This document shows, one piece after another, positions 30,108-39,979 of a DNA stretch of 44,547 bases (positions are counted from its first letter, which is position 1; each line of letters begins with the position of its first letter). Source of the stretch: Kamptonema formosum PCC 6407. GTDB lineage: Bacteria > Cyanobacteriota > Cyanobacteriia > Cyanobacteriales > Microcoleaceae. The notes beneath the pieces were generated by a model that was not told the DNA's origin, searched no databases, and was given only the letters and a program-made list of their open reading frames with translations. The position numbers and the translations under genes were made by a program. Location of the stretch: NCBI RefSeq assembly GCF_000332155.1, contig NZ_KB235904.1, positions 1 through 44,547 of the forward strand, given 5' to 3'.

Positions 30108-31994
30108 ATGAAAATAACGTGGAAAACTGCACTACTTTGGACTTTACCAGCTTTAGTCATCGGATTTTTCCTGTGGCAAGGGGCCTTTGCTGCTTCCCCC
30201 ACAGATATGAGCAAGAATACTGCTAGTACCCGGATGAGCTATGGCAGATTCTTGGAGTACCTTAACGCCAGTAGAGTAACTAGCGTTGACCTCTATGAAG
30301 GGGGTCGCACGGCTATTGTGGAGGCGATCGATCCAGAATTGGATAATCACGCGCAGCGGTGGCGGGTAGATTTGCCAGCAAATGCTCCTGAATTGATTTC
30401 TCAACTCAGGGATGCCAATATTGCTTTTGATACTCACCCTACACGCAATGACGGCGCACTCTGGAGCTTAGTAGGAAACTTAGTTTTCCCGATTCTGTTG
30501 ATCGCAGGTTTGTTTTTTCTCTTCCGCCGCAGCAATAATGTCCCCGGTGGGCCTGGTCAAGCGATGAATTTCGGGAAATCGAAGGCTCGTTTCCAAATGG
30601 AGGCTAAAACGGGTGTTGTCTTCGGTGATGTGGCTGGAGTTGAAGAAGCGAAAGAAGAACTTGAAGAAGTGGTGACATTTCTGAAAAAGCCGGAACGATT
30701 TACTGCTATTGGCGCGAAGATTCCTAAAGGTGTGTTGCTTGTCGGCCCTCCCGGAACTGGTAAAACTTTGCTGGCAAAGGCGATCGCAGGTGAAGCGGGT
30801 GTTCCTTTCTTCAGCATCTCTGGTTCGGAATTTGTGGAGATGTTTGTCGGTGTTGGTGCTTCCCGCGTTCGGGACTTGTTTAAGAAGGCTAAGGAAAATG
30901 CTCCTTGTATTATCTTTATTGATGAAATCGATGCTGTAGGCCGTCAGCGGGGTGCAGGTATTGGTGGCGGTAACGATGAACGGGAACAGACTCTCAACCA
31001 ATTGCTGACGGAAATGGACGGTTTTGAGGGCAATACTGGGATTATTATCATTGCGGCTACTAACCGCCCTGATGTACTTGACTCTGCTTTGCTGCGTCCG
31101 GGTCGGTTCGATCGCCAGGTGTCGGTGGATACGCCGGATATTAAGGGTCGCTTAGAAATCTTAGAGGTTCACGCTCGAAATAAGAAACTGGGTGCGGATA
31201 TTTCTTTGGATGCGATCGCCCGCCGTACTCCTGGCTTTACTGGTGCTGATTTGGCGAATTTGCTCAATGAAGCAGCGATTTTAACCGCTCGTCGTCGTAA
31301 GGATGCGATTACGATGTTGGAGGTTGATGACGCTGTAGACCGCGTTGTGGCGGGTATGGAAGGTACTCCTTTGGTTGATAGCAAGAGCAAGCGTTTAATC
31401 GCTTATCACGAAATTGGCCACGCGATCGTGGGTACGATTATTAAAGCTCACGATCCCGTACAGAAGGTGACTTTAGTTCCTCGCGGACAAGCACGGGGTT
31501 TGACTTGGTTTATGCCAAGTGAAGACCAAGGATTGATTTCGCGATCGCAAATTCTCGCCCGGATTATGGGCGCTTTAGGTGGTCGCGCCGCCGAAGAAGT
31601 AGTTTTCGGCGATGCTGAAGTTACTACTGGTGCAGGTAACGATTTGCAGCAGGTAACGGGAATGGCCCGGCAAATGGTAACTCGCTTTGGGATGTCCGAT
31701 TTAGGGCCGATGTCTCTGGAAGCACAACAGAGTGAAATCTTTTTGGGTCGGGACTACACAGCGCGATCGGAGTATTCTGAAGAAATCGCCTCTCGCATTG
31801 ATGGTCAAGTCCGGTCAATAGTCGATCATTGCTATAACGAAGCTCGCCGAATTATCCGCGAAAATCGCACAGTCATTGACCGTTTAGTTGACCTGTTGAT
31901 CGAGAAAGAAACAATCGACGGTGAAGAGTTCCGCCAAATTGTTGCTGAGTACACTTTTGTGCCTGAAAAAGAGGAGTATGTGCCTCAGTTATAG
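30108..31994 (+). CDS. ftsH: ATP-dependent zinc metalloprotease FtsH
   Basis: A 628-residue membrane AAA+ protease. There are two membrane spans ([20 protein letters not shown] near residue 7, and [14 protein letters not shown] near residue 125) with a short lumenal/periplasmic domain between. The AAA module has Walker [15 protein letters not shown] (G213), Walker [13 protein letters not shown] and the second-region [18 protein letters not shown]. The Zn2+ site is [10 protein letters not shown] (H434, E435, H438) with distal D512 in [11 protein letters not shown]. The sequence is close to cyanobacterial FtsH2-type proteins that remove damaged D1 from photosystem II as hexamers in thylakoids. 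It is monocistronic with a structured leader. Confidence 0.95.
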
Positions 31995-32007
31995 GGGCGG
32001 ATAAAGA

Positions 32008-32100
32008 AACCGGGTTTCTTAGAAAAATCTCAGATTCTCTGCGAGATATCTAGCCAGAAACCCGGTTTCTAGTTTCTAGTCTTTTTGGGCGTAAATCCTG
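32008..32100. repeat. Decayed relative of the 111-bp element
   Basis: Contains AGAAACCGGGTTTCTT and CCAGAAACCCGGTTTCT, motifs found inside the 111-bp element, and ends GCGTAAATCCTG, one base off its terminal repeat. The left end is missing. It lies between ftsH and the parD-like gene. Confidence 0.5.
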
Positions 32101-32132: not shown

Positions 32133-32408
32133 ATGAACATTAGTCTTACACCTGAACAGGAAAAGTTTATTGATTTACAAATAAAAAGCGGTGGCTATTC
32201 TTCTGCTGATGAAGTAATTGCACAGGCATTGCAACTGCTTCAAGAAAGCTACCGTAATTCGGTTGAACAGCGACTGGAAGAATTACAACAGAAAATAGCA
32301 AGTGCAACTGAACAAATAACCAAAGGACAACTAACGGACGGCGAAATAGTTTTTGCCAGAATCCAGGAAAAAATTCGCCTGCTTTCTGAGGCTCAGCCAG
32401 AAACATGA
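32133..32408 (+). CDS. ParD-like antitoxin
   Basis: A 91-residue antitoxin of the ParD/CopG ribbon-helix-helix type: MNISLTPEQEKFIDLQIKSG, then GYSSADEVIAQALQLLQES is the DNA-binding part. The C-terminal helix (EELQQKIASATEQITKGQL) would bind the toxin. The stop overlaps the parE start by 4 bases (ATGA), the usual translational coupling. Its toxin gene is broken downstream, so the antitoxin is now an orphan, possibly kept because related toxins elsewhere are neutralised. Confidence 0.85.
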   Translation: MNISLTPEQEKFIDLQIKSGGYSSADEVIAQALQLLQESYRNSVEQRLEELQQKIASATEQITKGQLTDGEIVFARIQEKIRLLSEAQPET

Positions 32409-32818
32409 GTAGCTACAATTTTACAGATGATGCAATCCAAGATATAAATGAAATTTGCGATTACCTATTCACTAAAAAAAAATTATAATGCCGCTAGCCG
32501 CTTTTTTGATACACTAAGGCAGAAATGTAAACTTGTGGCAAATTTTCCCAATATGGGAAAAAGTTACGAGTATATATCACCCAACTTGCGTGGTTTTATA
32601 GTTGATGATTATAGCAACCGCCCAGTCGCTTAGGACGTTCTGATTTCCTGCCACTATAGATTCTATTCCCTTCTTCCCCTAGCCCCTAGTCCCTAGCCCC
32701 TAGCCCCTAGCTATATATCATTTTCTACTATCCCACAGAAGCGGGAATTAATGTTGCTCGTATCTTGAGTGGTTATCGCGACTTTGAGCCTATTTTTTCG
32801 CCAAACAGCGACAACTAA
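32405..32818 (+). pseudogene. parE toxin broken by frameshift and element insertion
   Basis: The first frame gives MSSYNFTDDAIQDINEICDY and stops just after an A9 tract (TTCACTAAAAAAAAATTATAA). A second frame continues with NAASRFFDTLRQKCKLVANF and PNLRGFIVDDY. A ~102-bp element (32612-32713) interrupts after VDDY, and the tail IIFYYPTEAGINVARILSGY then RDFEPIFSPNSDN follows. The joined product is a normal ParE-type toxin of about 100 residues. Two separate lesions make it inactive, unless the A-tract permits slippage; even then the insertion truncates it. Confidence 0.88.
32612..32713. mobile_element. CTAGCCC-containing small element, copy B, inside parE
   Basis: About 102 bp from TAGCAACCGCCCAGTCGC to CCCCTAGCTA. 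It holds TTAGGACGTTCTGA, TATTCCCTTCTTCCCCTAG and CTAGCCC heptamers as in copies A, C and D. Both flanks are TA-rich (GATTA ... TATATC), consistent with a TA or TATA target duplication. Exact excision restores the parE frame. Confidence 0.8.
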
Positions 32819-32869: not shown

Positions 32870-34183
32870 ATGATAAATCCAGCAGAGTATCGGCAACGGC
32901 GCGAACAGTTCATGGCTAAAATTGGCAGCGGAACCGCAGTATTTCGCAGTGCCCCAATGGCAGTAATGCACAATGATGTCGAATATGCCTATCGCCAAGA
33001 TAGCGATTTTTTATACTTAACTGGTTTCAATGAGGCCTCCGCTGTAGCAGTATTTGCACCCCACCACGAAGAACACAAATTTGTACTATTTGTCCAGCCA
33101 AAAGACCCCGAAAAAGAAACTTGGCATGGCTATCGCGCTGGCGTAGAAGGCGCAAAAGAAATCTACGGTGCAGATGAAGCTTATCCGATTAATGAGTTGG
33201 ATGAAAAACTACCTCAATATTTAGAAAAAGCAGAGCGAATTTACTATCATTTAGGACGCGATCGAGTTTTCAACGAAACTCTCCTCAAACACTGGCAGCG
33301 CTTAATGGCAACCTATCCAAAACGTGGTACAGGCCCAACAGCCATTGAAGATTCTAACATAATTTTACACCCAATGCGCCTCGTTAAAAGCGAAACTGAA
33401 TTAGCATTAATGCGGAAAGCCGCTGATATTTCAGTTGAAGCTCACAATCACGCAATGCAATTCGCAAAACCGGGGCGTTACGAGTATGAAATCCAAGCAG
33501 AAATCGAGCATATCTTTCGCCTGCGGGGTGGAAATGGCCCTGCTTACCCTTCAATTGTTGCATCAGGTCGTAACTCTTGTATTCTCCACTATATTGAAAA
33601 TAATCGTCAACTTCAAGAGGGAGACTTATTACTAATTGATGCAGGTTGCGCTTACGACTACTATAACGCCGACATTACCCGCACATTTCCCATAGGTGGC
33701 AAATTTACTCCCGAACAAAAGACAATTTACGAATTAGTTTTAGAGGCACAATTACAAGCAATTGCCGAAGTTAAACCCGGAAATCCTTACAGCAAAGTTC
33801 ACGAAAATGCTGTGCGAGTTCTAGTACAAGGTTTAATGGATTTAGGCCTCCTGTGTGGTGACATTGAAGAGATAATTAAAGAAGAGAAATACAAGCCATT
33901 TTATATGCACCGGACTGGACATTGGTTAGGGTTAGATGTTCACGATGTCGGCGTTTATCAGTACGGCGAAAATCCCCAACTTTTGCAACCAGGACAAGTT
34001 TTGACAGTCGAACCGGGAATTTATATCTCTCCAGAAATAAAACCAGTAGAAGGACAACCAGAAGTCGATCGAAAATGGCGCGGAATTGGCATCCGTATAG
34101 AAGACGATGTGTTAGTAACAGTAGATGGTCATCAAGTTTTGACAGCCGCAGTACCTAAATCTGTAGAATCATTAGAATGGTAA
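32870..34183 (+). CDS. pepP: Xaa-Pro aminopeptidase (aminopeptidase P)
   Basis: A 437-residue metallopeptidase that removes an N-terminal residue before Pro. The N-terminal creatinase-like domain (AEYRQRREQFMAKIG, then FLYLTGFNEASAVAVF) precedes the pita-bread catalytic domain. The dinuclear Mn ligands are D257 in LIDAGCAYDYY, D268 in NADITRTFPIG, H351 in HRTGHWLGLDVHDVG, E381 in VEPGIYI and E411 in GIRIEDDVLV. All are present, so the enzyme should be active. It is cytosolic with no signal peptide. It starts 51 bases after the broken parE, with no strong ribosome-binding site. Confidence 0.95.
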   Translation: MINPAEYRQRREQFMAKIGSGTAVFRSAPMAVMHNDVEYAYRQDSDFLYLTGFNEASAVAVFAPHHEEHKFVLFVQPKDPEKETWHGYRAGVEGAKEIYGADEAYPINELDEKLPQYLEKAERIYYHLGRDRVFNETLLKHWQRLMATYPKRGTGPTAIEDSNIILHPMRLVKSETELALMRKAADISVEAHNHAMQFAKPGRYEYEIQAEIEHIFRLRGGNGPAYPSIVASGRNSCILHYIENNRQLQEGDLLLIDAGCAYDYYNADITRTFPIGGKFTPEQKTIYELVLEAQLQAIAEVKPGNPYSKVHENAVRVLVQGLMDLGLLCGDIEEIIKEEKYKPFYMHRTGHWLGLDVHDVGVYQYGENPQLLQPGQVLTVEPGIYISPEIKPVEGQPEVDRKWRGIGIRIEDDVLVTVDGHQVLTAAVPKSVESLEW

Positions 34184-34903
34184 TGATTATCTAAATAGTC
34201 ACTTTTACTGATTTGGAATTAACCCATCAGATTTAAAATCCGATTTCTACCCCCTTTAAAAATGTTCCGATGAGAGGGGAATACAGAAATTGGCTTTTTT
34301 ATGTAGTTGCATTTATTTAATCCTAAAGTTAGATGCAAAATTTGCAATTTTATGTGTTCCCACATTTATAAAAAATTTTCCAATCAGCTTTAAAAGCGAG
34401 TAAATTCAGAACTTTACATATACTTGCGGTTTTTACTTAGGCTAGCAATCATTGTGATACCAAAACTCGTAGTAATACGCAAAGGTAACAAGCCAAATTT
34501 CCTCTTTTCCTGCCAGAATTCGCAATATCAATGCTGATAAACTAGGGATATAACCATTGCTACTGCAAAAATACTTTTGAAAACTTTTTCTTTTCTACCT
34601 CCCCATTTAACCAAATCTAGCGCGAAAGAGTTGCATTAACTTTGAGCTATAGTTTTTACGTGAATTTACGCAAATACTAAATCAGGAAACTTTATAAAAA
34701 AATTTACTTTATTTGGGAACTAACTTTTTTTACCTCTAGTCATAGTCAATATATTAGGTGCATCTCAAAAGCAGCAAATATATCTGTTGCATAACTCCAT
34801 ATACCCACAAAAATTGTGGGTAAAAGTTGTTTTAACTTCTGGGGTATTGAGATGCACTTGTTTTTTTGACTAGCTTTCTTCTACTTAATTTGTGAGGTAT
34901 TCT
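34184..34903. other. Long AT-rich region upstream of the RTX gene
   Basis: 720 bases with no credible gene. It includes a 99-bp inverted-repeat element at 34759-34857. The rest is AT-rich and likely holds the promoter of the RTX gene. GAGG at 34894-34897 serves the ATG at 34904. Confidence 0.55.
34759..34857. repeat. 99-bp inverted-repeat element before the RTX gene
   Basis: Ends GTGCATCTCAA (34759-34769) and TTGAGATGCAC (34847-34857) are perfect inverted copies. Inside, TACCCACAA/TTGTGGGTA forms a tight hairpin (34802-34822). It ends 46 bases before the start codon, so it may be transcribed in the leader. Confidence 0.7.
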
Positions 34904-37900
34904 ATGGACTTAGAAAATCAACAATTAGGAACTACACCTAGTCCTATATCAAGCGATCCTGTAGGAACTACACCTAGTCCTATATCAAGCGATCCTGTAG
35001 GAACTACACCTAGTCCTATATCAAGCGATCCTGTAGGAACTACACCTAGTCCTATATCAAGCGATCCTGTAGGAACTACACCTAGTCCTATATCAAGCGA
35101 TCCTTTAGGAACTACAACTAGCCCCATATTAAGCGATCCTTTAGGAACTACAACTAGCCCCATATTAAGCGATCCTTTAGGGACTACAACTAGCCCCATA
35201 TCAGATAACAATTCGACTGGGACTTCCACAAGTTTCACCCCAATTTTCACCACAACCGCTATCGATGATAGTTCTACTGGAGTTACCCTTGACTCCCTGT
35301 ATGATGAAACAACTTATCTGGAACAAAATCCAGACATCAAAGAGGCCATTAAAGAAGGTAAATTCAAAAATGGTAAGGATCACTTCGACAAATTTGGTAA
35401 AAAAGAGCAGCGCGAATTTAGCTTCATTTTTAGCGCCAAATACTATCTTGCTGCTAACAAAGATGTAGATGAAGCTTACCAAAAAGGAGATGTCAAAGAT
35501 CCTGTAGAACACTTCCTTAAGTTTGGTCAATACGAAGTCCAACGCGAGACTAGCATCTTCTTCAGCAGTAGCTATTATCAAGAGAAGAACATCAGCGTCC
35601 AAGACGCTATAGGAAAAGGGGAAGTGAAAAGTGTTGGCGAACACTTTATCAAGTTTGGGATCAAACAAGAACTTAGCTTCTCTGCAATATTCGAGAGCGA
35701 ATTTTACCTCAAGAAATATCCCGGAGTCAAAGAAGCGATTGACAAAGGCGAAATTAAGAGCGCCGCAGAGCACTTCTTAAAATACGGGATGGAAGAAGGA
35801 AGAATTTGCACTTCCTTATTCGACAAAAACTATTACAAAGCTAAATATCCCGACGTTGACGACAAGATCAAAAAAGGTAAATTCAAAAGTGCCTTTCAAC
35901 AATGGCTTAAAGAAGGATATTTTGAGGGTTTTAGCCCCAACGCCCTGATCGATCTTAGCTATTACGAACAAGAAAATCCCGGTGCAGACAAAGACATCAA
36001 AAGCGGCAAATTTATCAATCTCCTCGACCAATTCCTCAAAAAAGGATTAAAGGAAGGATTTAGCGCCAATGCCATCTTTGATATCGAATTCTACGGAGAA
36101 AAGCATTCAGAAGCAAAGGATGCTGTCAAGTCAGGGAAATATAGCAGTCTGTTTGAATATTTCCTCAAAGAAGGTCTCCAAAAAGGTGATATCAGCACTT
36201 CCTTATTCGATGAAGAATTTTACAAGGAACAACATCCAGAAGCACTGGAAGCTGTTAAATCCGGTAAATACAAAACCATCTTTGAATACTTCCTCCAAGA
36301 AGGAATGGTCAAAGGTGATAACCCCAATGCTCTCTTTGATACCGAATTTTATTTAGACAGCGATTCCGAAGCAGCTACCGCTATCCGTTCGGGCAAATAC
36401 AAAAATGCCCTTGAATACTTCCTCAAAGTGGGGATGGCAAAAGGCGACACAACTAGCCCCCTATTTGACGCTGATTTTTATCTAGAAACTAACGCAGAAG
36501 CATCCGCCGCCGTCAAGTCAGGGAAATATAAGAGTGCCTTTGAATACTTCTTGAAAGTAGGATTTGGCAAAGGAGACATCCCCACAGCCCTTTTCGATGG
36601 CGACTTTTACAGTCAGCAAAATATTGATGTAGACATCGATATCAAAGGCGGGAAGTTCAAGAATAAATTTGAACACTTCCTCAAAAAAGGGATTAAAGAA
36701 GGATTAAACTTCAATCCTCTGATCGATGTCAATTTTTATATCCAGCAAAATGCCGAAGTAGACATCGACATTAAAGCCGGTAAATTCAAGAACAAAATTG
36801 AACACCTGCTCAAAAAAGGTCTGAAAGAAGACTTGAAGATCAGCGTTTGGTTTGATAAAGACTTCTACATTAAGCAAGGTAGCGAACTAGGCGATCGCAT
36901 CGGCAAAGGTAAATTCAAGAGCGCCTTCTACGACTTTATCAGCAAAGGCATCTTTGAAGACAAAAGCCCCATTTCCTTTTTTGATGTCGCCTACTATCGG
37001 CAGAACTTCAAAGTTGAAGGCAAGAGTAGCTTCCTCTTCTTCCTCAAAACTGGGGCGGCACGCGGCGACATCCCCACCACCAACATCAATAGCTTTATCC
37101 AGTTTATCCAGCAAAATCAGTTAACTGTCATCATCAACCTCCCCGGAAATATCCCAGGAAATGACAACCCTGAAACACCACAACAAGGTGATATTACTTG
37201 GACGGGTACAAACGGGCCTGACAGAAAACAAGGATTTGCTGGCAATGATAACTTCGACGGCCGAGGTGGCAACGACTTCCTATTCAGCGGGCCAGGCAAT
37301 GATTTCCTCCAAGGCGGCGAAGGTAACGACTTCCTTGACGGCGAACAGGGTAACGACACTCTCGTTGGCGGCCCCGACAACGATACACTATGGGGCGGTC
37401 AAGGAAATGATTCCCTCTTAGGTGGTGCTGGCAACGACTTCCTGTTAGGCGAACAGGGCGAAGATACCCTCAAAGGCGAAGCTGGCAACGACACGCTCCT
37501 GGGCGCTCAAGGAACTGATTTGCTCGAAGGTGGAGAAGGTAACGACTCCCTCAGTGGCGGAGAAGGTGCCGATGTCTTTGTCTTCGGCACAAATGTTGGC
37601 AGCGATATCATCTCAGATTTCGTCAGCTCTAGCGATAAGCTGCAAATCACTTCCTCTGGAACTGTGAGCGTATCGTTCACCGGTTCTTCTGCTGTGCTGA
37701 ACTTAAACAATAACGGCACTATCACGCTTTTGGGTGTCACATCTCTGGGAGCAAACGATATCCAAATCCTGGGCGGTGGTTCTGTGATTGGTCTGACAAG
37801 CAGCACACCAAATCTGACCACTGTGACTGGTTACGGAGATTACAGCACCTTCACAGGCCCAATATTCTTCGATGGCTCCACCGGCACAGGCGGTTCAGTG

Positions 37901-39979
37901 ACAGGTACAGCTTTTGCTGACATCTTCTCTGGTGGTTCCGGTGCAGATATCTTTAATGGCGGTTCCGGTGCAGACTTGTTCTACGGCGGTTCTGGCGCTG
38001 ATATCTTCAGCGGCGGTGCTGGCAATGACACCTTCAATGGTGGTGCTGGCGATGACACCTTCACAGGTGGCGATGGTGCTGATGTCTTTGTCTTCGGCAC
38101 AACTGTGGGCTTAAACGAAGGCAACGATATCATCTCAGATTTCGTTAGCTCTACTGATAAGCTGCAAATCACTTCCTCTGGAACTGTGAGCGTATCGTTC
38201 ACTGGTTCTTCTGCTGTGCTGAACTTGAACAATAACGGCACTCTCACGCTGTTAGGTGTCACCTCTCTGGGAGCAAGCGATATCGAAATCCTTGGTGGTG
38301 GTTCTGTAATTGGTCTAACGAGTGCAACTCAGACAACATTGGCAGCTTATGGAGATTACAGCACCTTCACAGGGCCGATATTCTTCGATGGTTCTACTGG
38401 TACTGGCGGTTCAGTTACAGGTACAGCTTTTGCTGACATCTTCTCTGGCGGTTCCGGCGCAGACAATTTCTCTGGCGGTTCCGGCGCAGACTTGTTCTAC
38501 GGTGGTGCTGGCGCTGATACCTTCAGCGGCGGTGCTGGCGATGACACCTTCAGTGGTGGTGCTGGCAATGACTCTTTGAGTGGTGGCGATGGTGCTGATG
38601 TCTTTGTCTTCGGCACAACTGTGGGCTTAAACGAAGGCAGCGATACTATCTCTGGTTTTGCGACTGGTACTGATAAGCTGCAAATCACTTCCTCTGGAAC
38701 GGTAAGCGTATCCTTCAGCGGTGGCGATGCTGTGTTGAACTTGAACAATAACGGCACTGTCACGCTCTTGGGTGTCACCTCTCTGGGAACAAGCGATATC
38801 CAAATCCTCGGCGGTGGTTCTCTGATTGGCCTGACGAGCACCACAGCAACTCAGACAACTTTGACTGCTTATGGAGATTACAGCACCTTTACAGGGCCGA
38901 TATTCTTTGATGGCTCTAGTACTACTGGTGGCTCAGTCACGGGTACAGCTTTTGCTGACATCTTCAAAGGTGGTTCGGGCGCAGACAATTTCTCTGGCGG
39001 TTCCGGTGCAGACTTGTTCTACGGTGGTGCTGGCGCTGACACCTTCAGCGGCGGGTTAGGCGACGATACCTTCACTGGTGGTGAAGGCAATGACTCTTTG
39101 AGTGGTGGCGACGGTGCCGATGTCTTTGTCTTCGGCACAACTGTGGGCTTAAACGAAGGCAGCGATACTATCTCCGGTTTTGCGACTGGTACTGATAAGC
39201 TGCAAATCACTTCCTCTGGAACGGTAAGCGTATCCTTCAGCGGTGGCGATGCTGTGTTGAACTTGAACAATAACGGCACTGTCACGCTCTTGGGTGTCAC
39301 TTCTCTGGGAACAAGCGATATCCAAATCTTGGGCGGTGGTTCTCTCAGCACTACAACCGCAGCTAACACGACTCCTATCACCTTCAATGCTTCTGCTCCT
39401 GGCGTTTACGACTTCAGCGGCAGTACCGTAGCTGTGAACTTTGTCGGTAGCTCTGGCATCAATAATGTGACGGCTACTGCTTACGCTGATACGCTCTACG
39501 GCTTTGAGGGTGATGACATCTTCAACGGCGGTTCTGGTGCGGACATTATCAGCGGTGGTTCTGGTGCTGACTTGCTGACTGGCGGCGCAGGCAATGATGT
39601 CTTTGTTTACAGCTCTACCAGTGAGGGTGGCGATACGATTACCGACTTCGTGACAGGTGATGTATTGCGCTTCAGCTCTGCAAACTTCGGCGGCTTCACT
39701 TCTATTATCTACCAGGCTGCTGCTAATACTAGCGTTAGCGTTGTGGATGTTAATTTTGTGGACTTCAGCGGAGTTGCCTCTATCACTTCTCTGGCGCAGG
39801 CGATCGATCAGTTCGCTGTTCAGTCAGGTGCTTCTGGGCCTGCTTTCATCCTGTATAACAGCGGTGCAGGTAGCGCATTGGCCTTTGATTCTAATGGCAC
39901 TACTGCTGGCGGCGGCTTCAATATCACCAACTTCAGTGGTGTAGTGACTCTGGCGGCAAATAACTTTACTTTGTTGTAA
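34904..39979 (+). CDS. Giant RTX-type calcium-binding repeat protein
   Basis: A 1691-residue, probably secreted protein. Residues 9-100 are eight tandem 12-residue units (GTTPSPISSDPV, later GTTTSPILSDPL). Residues ~131-722 are 14 units of ~41 residues of the form LFDxxFYxxxxPEAxxAVKSGKYKSxFEYFLKxG. From ~770 come RTX nonapeptides (GGEGNDFLDG, GGQGNDSLLGGAGND) that bind Ca2+ in a beta-roll. Then come repeated ~170-residue modules with KLQITSSGTVSVSF and LNLNNNGTITLLGVTSLG. No signal peptide is seen and the C-terminus is hydrophobic, as in type I secretion substrates; no ABC exporter is in the window. GAGG six bases upstream fixes the ATG. The role is perhaps surface or sheath related. Confidence 0.85.
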   Translation: MDLENQQLGTTPSPISSDPVGTTPSPISSDPVGTTPSPISSDPVGTTPSPISSDPVGTTPSPISSDPLGTTTSPILSDPLGTTTSPILSDPLGTTTSPISDNNSTGTSTSFTPIFTTTAIDDSSTGVTLDSLYDETTYLEQNPDIKEAIKEGKFKNGKDHFDKFGKKEQREFSFIFSAKYYLAANKDVDEAYQKGDVKDPVEHFLKFGQYEVQRETSIFFSSSYYQEKNISVQDAIGKGEVKSVGEHFIKFGIKQELSFSAIFESEFYLKKYPGVKEAIDKGEIKSAAEHFLKYGMEEGRICTSLFDKNYYKAKYPDVDDKIKKGKFKSAFQQWLKEGYFEGFSPNALIDLSYYEQENPGADKDIKSGKFINLLDQFLKKGLKEGFSANAIFDIEFYGEKHSEAKDAVKSGKYSSLFEYFLKEGLQKGDISTSLFDEEFYKEQHPEALEAVKSGKYKTIFEYFLQEGMVKGDNPNALFDTEFYLDSDSEAATAIRSGKYKNALEYFLKVGMAKGDTTSPLFDADFYLETNAEASAAVKSGKYKSAFEYFLKVGFGKGDIPTALFDGDFYSQQNIDVDIDIKGGKFKNKFEHFLKKGIKEGLNFNPLIDVNFYIQQNAEVDIDIKAGKFKNKIEHLLKKGLKEDLKISVWFDKDFYIKQGSELGDRIGKGKFKSAFYDFISKGIFEDKSPISFFDVAYYRQNFKVEGKSSFLFFLKTGAARGDIPTTNINSFIQFIQQNQLTVIINLPGNIPGNDNPETPQQGDITWTGTNGPDRKQGFAGNDNFDGRGGNDFLFSGPGNDFLQGGEGNDFLDGEQGNDTLVGGPDNDTLWGGQGNDSLLGGAGNDFLLGEQGEDTLKGEAGNDTLLGAQGTDLLEGGEGNDSLSGGEGADVFVFGTNVGSDIISDFVSSSDKLQITSSGTVSVSFTGSSAVLNLNNNGTITLLGVTSLGANDIQILGGGSVIGLTSSTPNLTTVTGYGDYSTFTGPIFFDGSTGTGGSVTGTAFADIFSGGSGADIFNGGSGADLFYGGSGADIFSGGAGNDTFNGGAGDDTFTGGDGADVFVFGTTVGLNEGNDIISDFVSSTDKLQITSSGTVSVSFTGSSAVLNLNNNGTLTLLGVTSLGASDIEILGGGSVIGLTSATQTTLAAYGDYSTFTGPIFFDGSTGTGGSVTGTAFADIFSGGSGADNFSGGSGADLFYGGAGADTFSGGAGDDTFSGGAGNDSLSGGDGADVFVFGTTVGLNEGSDTISGFATGTDKLQITSSGTVSVSFSGGDAVLNLNNNGTVTLLGVTSLGTSDIQILGGGSLIGLTSTTATQTTLTAYGDYSTFTGPIFFDGSSTTGGSVTGTAFADIFKGGSGADNFSGGSGADLFYGGAGADTFSGGLGDDTFTGGEGNDSLSGGDGADVFVFGTTVGLNEGSDTISGFATGTDKLQITSSGTVSVSFSGGDAVLNLNNNGTVTLLGVTSLGTSDIQILGGGSLSTTTAANTTPITFNASAPGVYDFSGSTVAVNFVGSSGINNVTATAYADTLYGFEGDDIFNGGSGADIISGGSGADLLTGGAGNDVFVYSSTSEGGDTITDFVTGDVLRFSSANFGGFTSIIYQAAANTSVSVVDVNFVDFSGVASITSLAQAIDQFAVQSGASGPAFILYNSGAGSALAFDSNGTTAGGGFNITNFSGVVTLAANNFTLL
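34928..35203 (+). repeat. 36-bp coding minisatellite in the RTX gene
   Basis: Eight 36-bp units, GGAACTACACCTAGTCCTAT plus 16 more bases, encode Thr/Pro/Ser-rich dodecapeptides. The first four or so are identical at DNA level; the last three form a second subtype and the final unit is partial. Copy number is likely variable. Confidence 0.92.
38601..39345 (+). repeat. Internal 522-bp-period duplication in the RTX gene
   Basis: Bases 38601-38823 and 39123-39345 differ at only four positions by eye, offset by 522 bases. Related modules lie near 37570 and 38080. The near identity points to recent duplication or gene conversion. Confidence 0.85.

What the first reader, a model, noticed from the sequence alone, without database searches (positions are those of the whole stretch)
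32405..32818. ParE toxin gene broken by a small CTAGCCC element; excision restores the frame
The ParE frame reads to VDDY, is cut by ~102 bp, then resumes as IIFYYPTEAG to a proper stop. The ends TAGC...GCTA and TA-rich flanks look like a clean insertion with a short target duplication. A separate A9 frameshift also lies upstream. This dates an insertion by a repeat usually treated as a passive intergenic sequence and leaves an orphan ParD.
Basis: seen in the sequence. Interest (0 to 1): 0.75.

Follow-up and report, generated by a model that had tools for sequence, protein, structure and literature searches.

The report
Tiny transposon inside a cyanobacterial parE
A roughly 100-base "passive" repeat that interrupts a toxin-antitoxin gene in a cyanobacterium is one of many copies of a miniature transposon whose end matches those of a known kind of jumping gene, so these seven-base repeat arrays can spread by jumping and can break genes.

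Summary
A parE-like frame (32405-32818) after an intact parD is cut by a 102-bp CTAGCCC-heptad element (32612-32713) between two TA dinucleotides; a nine-A run at 32474-32482 also changes the frame. In 23 of 24 distinct homologous ORFs matching both halves, the residues on either side of the element are adjacent. The element belongs to a large family: its end motif TATAGCAACCGC occurs 199 times in the genome, 0 times reversed. Six other copies have single-TA empty sites in a congener. The left end matches (25 of 28 bases) terminal repeats of IS630-family insertion sequences of the same order, and an IS630 transposase remnant in this genome carries the same type of end. It is a non-autonomous IS630-type MITE inserted at a TA. 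Unusual: the heptad array rides inside the MITE, and 18 of 36 two-ended copies collected, this one included, keep only GCTA at the heptad end. The insertion is not dated.

The parts
32133..32408 (+). parD antitoxin gene, intact 91 aa
   Evidence: TIGR02606 54.5 bits vs cut-off 46.2; PF03693 29.3 vs 21 bits
32405..32473 (+). parE piece 1 (N-terminal part), up to the A run
   Evidence: 55-71% identical to the start of 19 of the 25 homologous ORF rows
32474..32482 (+). run of nine A where the reading frame changes
   Evidence: read directly
32483..32611 (+). parE piece 2 (middle part), ends at the element
   Evidence: PF05016 ParE_toxin 25.2 bits vs cut-off 23 on ORF 32448-32630; matches at E<=1e-6 in 39 of 61 family genomes, own genome included
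32610..32611 (.). TA, left copy of the target duplication
   Evidence: read directly; single TA at empty sites of other copies
32612..32713 (+). inserted MITE, TAGC...GCTA, 102 bp
   Evidence: 48 genome matches at E<=1e-3; one of 36 two-ended copies collected
32612..32637 (+). left terminal repeat of the MITE, matching IS630-family IS ends
   Evidence: the 28 bases from 32610 share 25 of 28 with the right terminal repeats of L256, L258, L259, L271, L276, L278
32677..32711 (+). CTAGCCC heptad array; on the other strand (GGGGCTA)n
   Evidence: direct repeat D2; array at 0-based 32676-32711
32707..32713 (+). short right end, CTAGCTA, without the second terminal repeat
   Evidence: 18 of 36 two-ended copies have this type
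32714..32715 (.). TA, right copy of the target duplication
   Evidence: read directly
32717..32818 (+). parE piece 3 (C-terminal part) to the stop codon
   Evidence: abuts piece 2 with no residue between in 23 of 24 distinct homologous ORFs

Best explanation
The interrupting element is a non-autonomous miniature transposon (MITE) that uses IS630-family (Tc1/mariner-like) ends. A transposase of an IS630 element with a terminal repeat like TAGCAACCGCCAAGGCGGTTAGGAC would act in trans on TAGC...GCTA ends, insert the element at a TA and duplicate it. One such insertion fell in parE of a parDE module between ftsH and pepP. Together with a frame break at a nine-A run this left a parE pseudogene beside an intact parD. 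The CTAGCCC heptads are a variable passenger array inside the MITE and, in this sub-type, reach right to its end. Shown: the family, its ends, single-TA empty sites for other copies, autonomous IS630 elements with the same ends in relatives, a transposase remnant with this end type in this genome, contiguity of the parE halves in homologues. Inferred: that this transposase type moved this copy, that the short right end was competent at the time, and anything about the order of the two lesions.
For: Family and ends: (36 two-ended copies, 84-286 bp). Empty sites: of 14 copy-to-relative pairs aligned, 6 have a single TA in G002 in place of the element: L105 exactly, L002 and L010 with one base changed nearby, L006 with a small indel in the left flank, L114 and L014 with a poorly conserved right flank. 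Three are occupied in both genomes (L107, L009, L123, with changed heptad number), 1 is imprecise (L005 vs G001) and 4 are unclear (L016, L017, L019, L104). Autonomous partner: remnant L253 has an IS630 transposase C-terminus ending beside TATAGCAACCGCTTTCGTCGGTTAGGAC. Matches to that C-terminus occur in 44 of 243 genomes of the order, own genome included. Of the 30 loci returned (own remnant included), 22 carry GGTTGCTATA (<=1 mismatch) on the transposase's 3' side, 14 exactly; 15 show a matching repeat at both ends 959-1012 bp apart, 12 of these beginning TATAGCAA. parE halves: 23 of 24 distinct ORFs.
Against: This copy has the full terminal repeat at one end only, and ISY100 work takes the 24-bp repeats at both ends as the likely minimum (PMC2170065, passage). 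No intact cognate transposase was found in this genome: one remnant at E<=1e-10. The six other own DDE_3 hits, most of them fragments, had no exact or one-mismatch end of this kind within about 1.5 kb. Eight of the 30 transposase loci do not carry the GGTTGCTATA end. No empty allele exists at the parE site itself. The reciprocal test, G001/G002 copies against this genome, gave no clean empty site: 8 copies queried, 6 locus pairs compared. The left-end hairpin of this copy does not fold better than shuffles (z 0.92, 162 of 200 shuffles at least as good).
Confidence: 0.9

Rival explanations
1. The heptad array grew in place inside parE by slippage, and the TAGC...GCTA ends are coincidence.
For: Heptad number varies between orthologous copies (L107, L009, L123), so slippage does occur within elements.
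Against: The left half (TATAGCAACCGCC...GGACGTTCTGA...GATTCTATTCCC) is not heptad sequence and recurs across the genome. The parE halves abut in homologues.
Confidence: 0.02
2. The element is a REP/REPIN-like palindrome moved by a RAYT (Y1) transposase and not by IS630.
For: At least one copy is little more than a palindrome (L117, 29 bp), and full ends are hairpin-like by eye.
Against: Single-TA empty sites and the match of the ends to DDE-type IS630 elements. RAYT genes were not searched.
Confidence: 0.03
3. A variant of the best explanation: the element arrived with full repeats at both ends and lost the right hairpin afterwards, so short-ended copies are secondary and immobile.
For: Full right ends (such as CCCCTAACCGCC..GGCGGTTGCTATA) differ from short ones (CCCCTAGCTATA) by little more than the hairpin.
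Against: Right-end type goes with similarity of the first 60 bases of the element: nearest neighbours share it in 27 of 36 cases against 17.4 for permuted labels, reached by 23 of 5000 shuffles. Three closely similar copies (L088, L105, L393) are all short. 4 of the 6 single-TA sites belong to short-ended copies. Repeated hairpin loss is not excluded.
Confidence: 0.35

Closest known systems
IS630-family insertion sequences of genomes of the same order (e.g. L256, L258, L259, L261)
   Same: Terminal repeats of the type TATAGCAACCGCCAAGGCGGTTAGGAC with TA flanks; NF033545/PF13358 for the transposase pieces of L256.
   Different: About 960-1010 bp with a transposase; full repeats at both ends.
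ISY100 of Synechocystis (Tc1/mariner/IS630), PMC2170065 (passages seen)
   Same: TA target and TA duplication, family mechanism.
   Different: 24-bp imperfect repeats at both ends thought to be the minimum; this copy has one full end.
BrickBuilt MITE of Porphyromonas gingivalis, PMC4596501 (abstract and outline seen)
   Same: A tandem-repeat array carried inside a MITE.
   Different: 23-nt units, 19 copies in one strain, always intergenic; here 7-bp units, more copies, one inside a gene.
MITEs of Anabaena sp. 90, PMC3542288 (passages seen), and the cyanobacterial MITE Nezha (seen only as a reference title in PMC10969869)
   Same: MITEs that break genes in cyanobacteria are already reported (15 of 147 in Anabaena 90).
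   Different: Those were called type II because no IS in that genome shares their ends; here a partner IS family is identified, in relatives and as a remnant.
Heptanucleotide repeats of cyanobacteria (STRR, recalled; GGGGA(C/T)T arrays, PMC4692102, passages seen)
   Same: G-rich heptad arrays over-represented outside genes.
   Different: Described there as simple sequence repeats; here the CTAGCCC arrays lie in a mobile element.

Membership tests
IS630-related MITE | Small, no transposase gene, many dispersed copies | tested here: met
   102 bp here, 84-286 bp in 36 copies; 48 matches, 199 end motifs
IS630-related MITE | TA target duplication | tested here: met
   6 of 14 aligned pairs show a single TA at the empty site; at parE itself inferred from homologues
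IS630-related MITE | Terminal inverted repeats at both ends shared with an autonomous IS630 element | tested here: inconclusive
   Family: 18 of 36 copies have a full right end (one of them, L367, has a doubtful boundary). This copy: left end 25 of 28, right end only GCTA
IS630-related MITE | Cognate transposase gene intact in the same genome | tested here: not met
   Only a C-terminal remnant at E<=1e-10. Not a strict requirement: MITEs can outlive their IS (general knowledge)
parDE toxin-antitoxin module | ParD-family antitoxin upstream of and overlapping a ParE-family frame | tested here: met
   TIGR02606 and PF03693 for ParD, PF05016 for the ORF of parE piece 2; 4-bp overlap
parDE toxin-antitoxin module | Intact toxin reading frame | tested here: not met
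   Broken at a nine-A run and by the element
REPIN/RAYT | RAYT (Y1) transposase partner | not tested
   No search made; TA duplications and IS630 ends make it unlikely

The most novel reading that the evidence does not exclude
The heptad array itself serves as a transposon end. Because a CTAGCCC array can finish in ...CTAGCTA, elements with one true IS630 terminal repeat and an array at the other end still transpose. Array slippage then makes a self-renewing, variable-length end, and these 'passive' G-rich heptad arrays are spread by transposition.
Probability: 0.3. Interest if true: 0.62.

Novelty: new variant of a known kind. Interest (0 to 1): 0.45.

Why it matters
In this genome one class of cyanobacterial heptad repeats, usually described as simple intergenic sequence, is carried by a mobile IS630-type MITE: 10 of 13 arrays in a 160-kb sample (which includes this copy) have at least one element end beside them, where random positions have a left end in 1.6% and a right end in 1.0% of cases. 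That gives a mechanism for how such arrays spread, a gene that one of them broke, and a testable puzzle: how an element with one proper end and four bases at the other moves, when ISY100 is thought to need 24-bp repeats at both ends (PMC2170065, passage).

Tried and rejected
Other own IS630 copies as partner: L248 and L249 have different terminal repeats, so they were rejected. A pair of element end motifs 1584 bp apart (L111) was checked as a possible autonomous IS: it encloses an ORF that is not among the DDE_3 hits (the ORF was not scanned), between two heptad elements. Twenty-kb comparison with G002 around C7:80-100 kb: intergenic DNA diverges too much for clean calls; one element of this genome had no counterpart in G002, and one of G002 had only an end fragment here. 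Reciprocal empty-site search: no clean site. Generalising to all heptad arrays: in 828 kb of loci, mostly of relatives, only 15 of 208 period-7 arrays had such an end nearby, and those with both ends were of the CTAGCCC type, so the claim is limited to that type. That set includes one copy of the window (L051), loci of the genus and some overlapping loci. Folding of the left end: no better than shuffles; one stretch meant as a control (L258) was taken at the wrong coordinates and is ignored. Literature: eight searches of the held open-licence library; none of the titles and abstract beginnings shown described CTAGCCC heptads in an IS630 MITE, but the lists were capped and five papers were opened, in part only. 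The 2008 paper on very small mobile repeats in cyanobacteria (Elhai and others, recalled) is not held, so priority cannot be judged.

Full report
What is there. Window 32133-32408 is an intact ParD-type antitoxin gene (TIGR02606 54.5 bits; PF03693). A parE-type frame starts at 32405 and overlaps it by 4 bp. It breaks at a run of nine A (32474-32482), continues in another frame (PF05016 on ORF 32448-32630, 25.2 vs 23 bits), meets an element of 102 bp (32612-32713) flanked by TA on both sides, and resumes at 32717 up to a stop at 32818. The neighbours are an ftsH-like gene (30108-31994) and an aminopeptidase P-like gene, called pepP here (32870-34183).

The halves belong together. The three pieces were compared separately with ORFs of relatives. 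Of 33 ORFs hit, 25 rows matched both piece 2 and piece 3. In 24 rows the two pieces fall on adjacent residues; since L023 and L056 are the same ORF this is 23 of 24 distinct ORFs. One (L079) overlaps by 10 residues, probably an alignment ambiguity; 6 matched piece 2 without piece 3, and the last 2 of the 33 did not match piece 2. Uninterrupted homologues therefore exist in several genera (39 of 61 family genomes, own included, have a match at E<=1e-6; L022 and L023), but none was found at this site.

The site in congeners. The two other genomes of the genus appear to be Kamptonema sp. UHCC 0994 (G002) and Oscillatoriales cyanobacterium USR001 (G001); the names are inferred from matching contig positions. 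In USR001 the ftsH-pepP gap keeps the end of parD and the first bases of parE (33 bp, 94% identical), followed 3 bp later by the sequence downstream of parE (62 bp, 85%). So the module was there before and has been deleted. In UHCC 0994 the ftsH and pepP contigs break off between the two genes with no parDE seen in what is left. The best ParE matches in the two are only 43% and 40% identical. The module is thus decaying in this genus.

The element is a family. Its DNA has 48 matches at E<=1e-3 in this 6.89-Mb genome; 40 of 531 first-look candidates were scored, so this is a lower bound. The end motif TATAGCAACCGC occurs 199 times against 0 for the reversed control. Thirty-six distinct two-ended copies were collected, 84-286 bp long. 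They were gathered by likeness to this element or by the end motif, so their proportions are not those of the whole family. All begin TATAGCAACC (<=1 mismatch) by the search rule; 18 end in a full inverted copy (GGTTGCTATA, <=1 mismatch; L367 is doubtful) and 18 in ...CTAG(C/T)TATA. In one 160-kb stretch, which includes the window, 13 CTAGCCC arrays were found: 7 have the left end, 6 a right end, 3 both and 10 at least one, against 1.6%, 1.0% and 0.2% of 5000 random positions for left, right and both. Three of 13 have neither. A similar element exists outside the genus (L026 from another family).

It moves, and it duplicates TA. Predicted empty sites of 16 copies were searched in UHCC 0994 and USR001, and 14 copy-to-relative pairs were aligned. 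Six show a single TA where this genome has TA-element-TA: L105 exactly, with 96-98% identical flanks; L002 and L010 with one base changed nearby; L006 with a small indel in the left flank; L114 and L014 with a poorly conserved right flank. Three are occupied in both genomes with a changed number of heptads (L107, L009, L123). One (L005, against USR001) is imprecise and four are unclear (L016, L017, L019, L104). The other two of the 16 (L015, L113) had no listed match. The opposite test, copies of the relatives against this genome, gave no clean site (8 queried; 6 locus pairs compared).

The partner. An IS630-type transposase remnant in this genome (L253, contig C7 near 957.6 kb) ends beside TATAGCAACCGCTTTCGTCGGTTAGGAC. 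Matches to it occur in 44 of 243 genomes of the order, own included. Of the 30 loci returned, own remnant included, 22 have the GGTTGCTATA end (<=1 mismatch; 14 exactly) beside the transposase and 8 do not. Fifteen have matching repeats at both ends 959-1012 bp apart, and 12 of these begin TATAGCAA; an example is TATAGCAACCGCCAAGGCGGTTAGGACG at the right end of L258. The 28 bases starting at 32610 of the window match six of these right ends at 25 of 28. The transposase of L273 and the two pieces of L256 match the IS630 family models (NF033545; PF13358, PF01710; one L256 piece alone is below the NF033545 cut-off). In this genome only the remnant was found at E<=1e-10, so the family may now be without a helper here or be using another IS630 transposase.

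The odd end. This copy and 17 others of the 36 keep only GCTA at the heptad end. Right-end type is shared by nearest neighbours (first 60 bases) in 27 of 36 cases (17.4 expected, 23 of 5000 shuffles as high). Four of the six single-TA sites belong to short-ended copies. That favours transposition in the short form, but repeated loss of the end hairpin after insertion is not excluded. ISY100 is thought to need its 24-bp repeats (PMC2170065, passage).

Known or new. MITEs breaking genes in cyanobacteria (PMC3542288, passages), IS630 elements with TA duplication (PMC2170065, passages) and a tandem array inside a MITE (BrickBuilt, PMC4596501, abstract) are all known. What is added here is that CTAGCCC heptad arrays travel inside an IS630-type MITE and that half of the two-ended copies collected lack one terminal repeat. 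In a mixed set of loci, mostly of relatives, 193 of 208 period-7 arrays had no such end nearby, so this does not explain heptad repeats in general.

Noticed in passing
L111 (G000:C6:2335800-2338500): Two heptad elements with outward TATAGCAACCGC ends, outer ends 1584 bp apart, enclose one ORF; the unit looks like a possible composite mobile segment.
   Followed up: partly
L117 (G000:C6:1020342-1020370): A 29-bp solo palindrome TATAGCAACCGCTGAAAGCGGTTGCTATA with no heptads, perhaps the smallest form of the family.
   Followed up: no
L025, about 2537-2572 (G001): A heptad array with short ends on both sides (TATAGCTAGGG...CTAGCTATA) and no terminal repeat at all.
   Followed up: no
32005-32019 and 32056-32070: A perfect 15-bp inverted repeat AGAAACCGGGTTTCT / AGAAACCCGGTTTCT just after ftsH.
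   Followed up: no
34892-39979: A 1695-aa ORF with N-terminal tandem repeats and many glycine-aspartate-rich repeats that look like RTX calcium-binding repeats (recalled resemblance, not scanned).
   Followed up: no
L133:1433-1530 (G001): Deletion scar of parDE between ftsH and pepP in a congener.
   Followed up: yes
L137 (G035): Long tandem array of units of roughly 65-70 bp (GAGTTAATTGAAGAAATTCAACCCGC...AGCGGTTTCAACCGCC) upstream of pepP in a relative.
   Followed up: no
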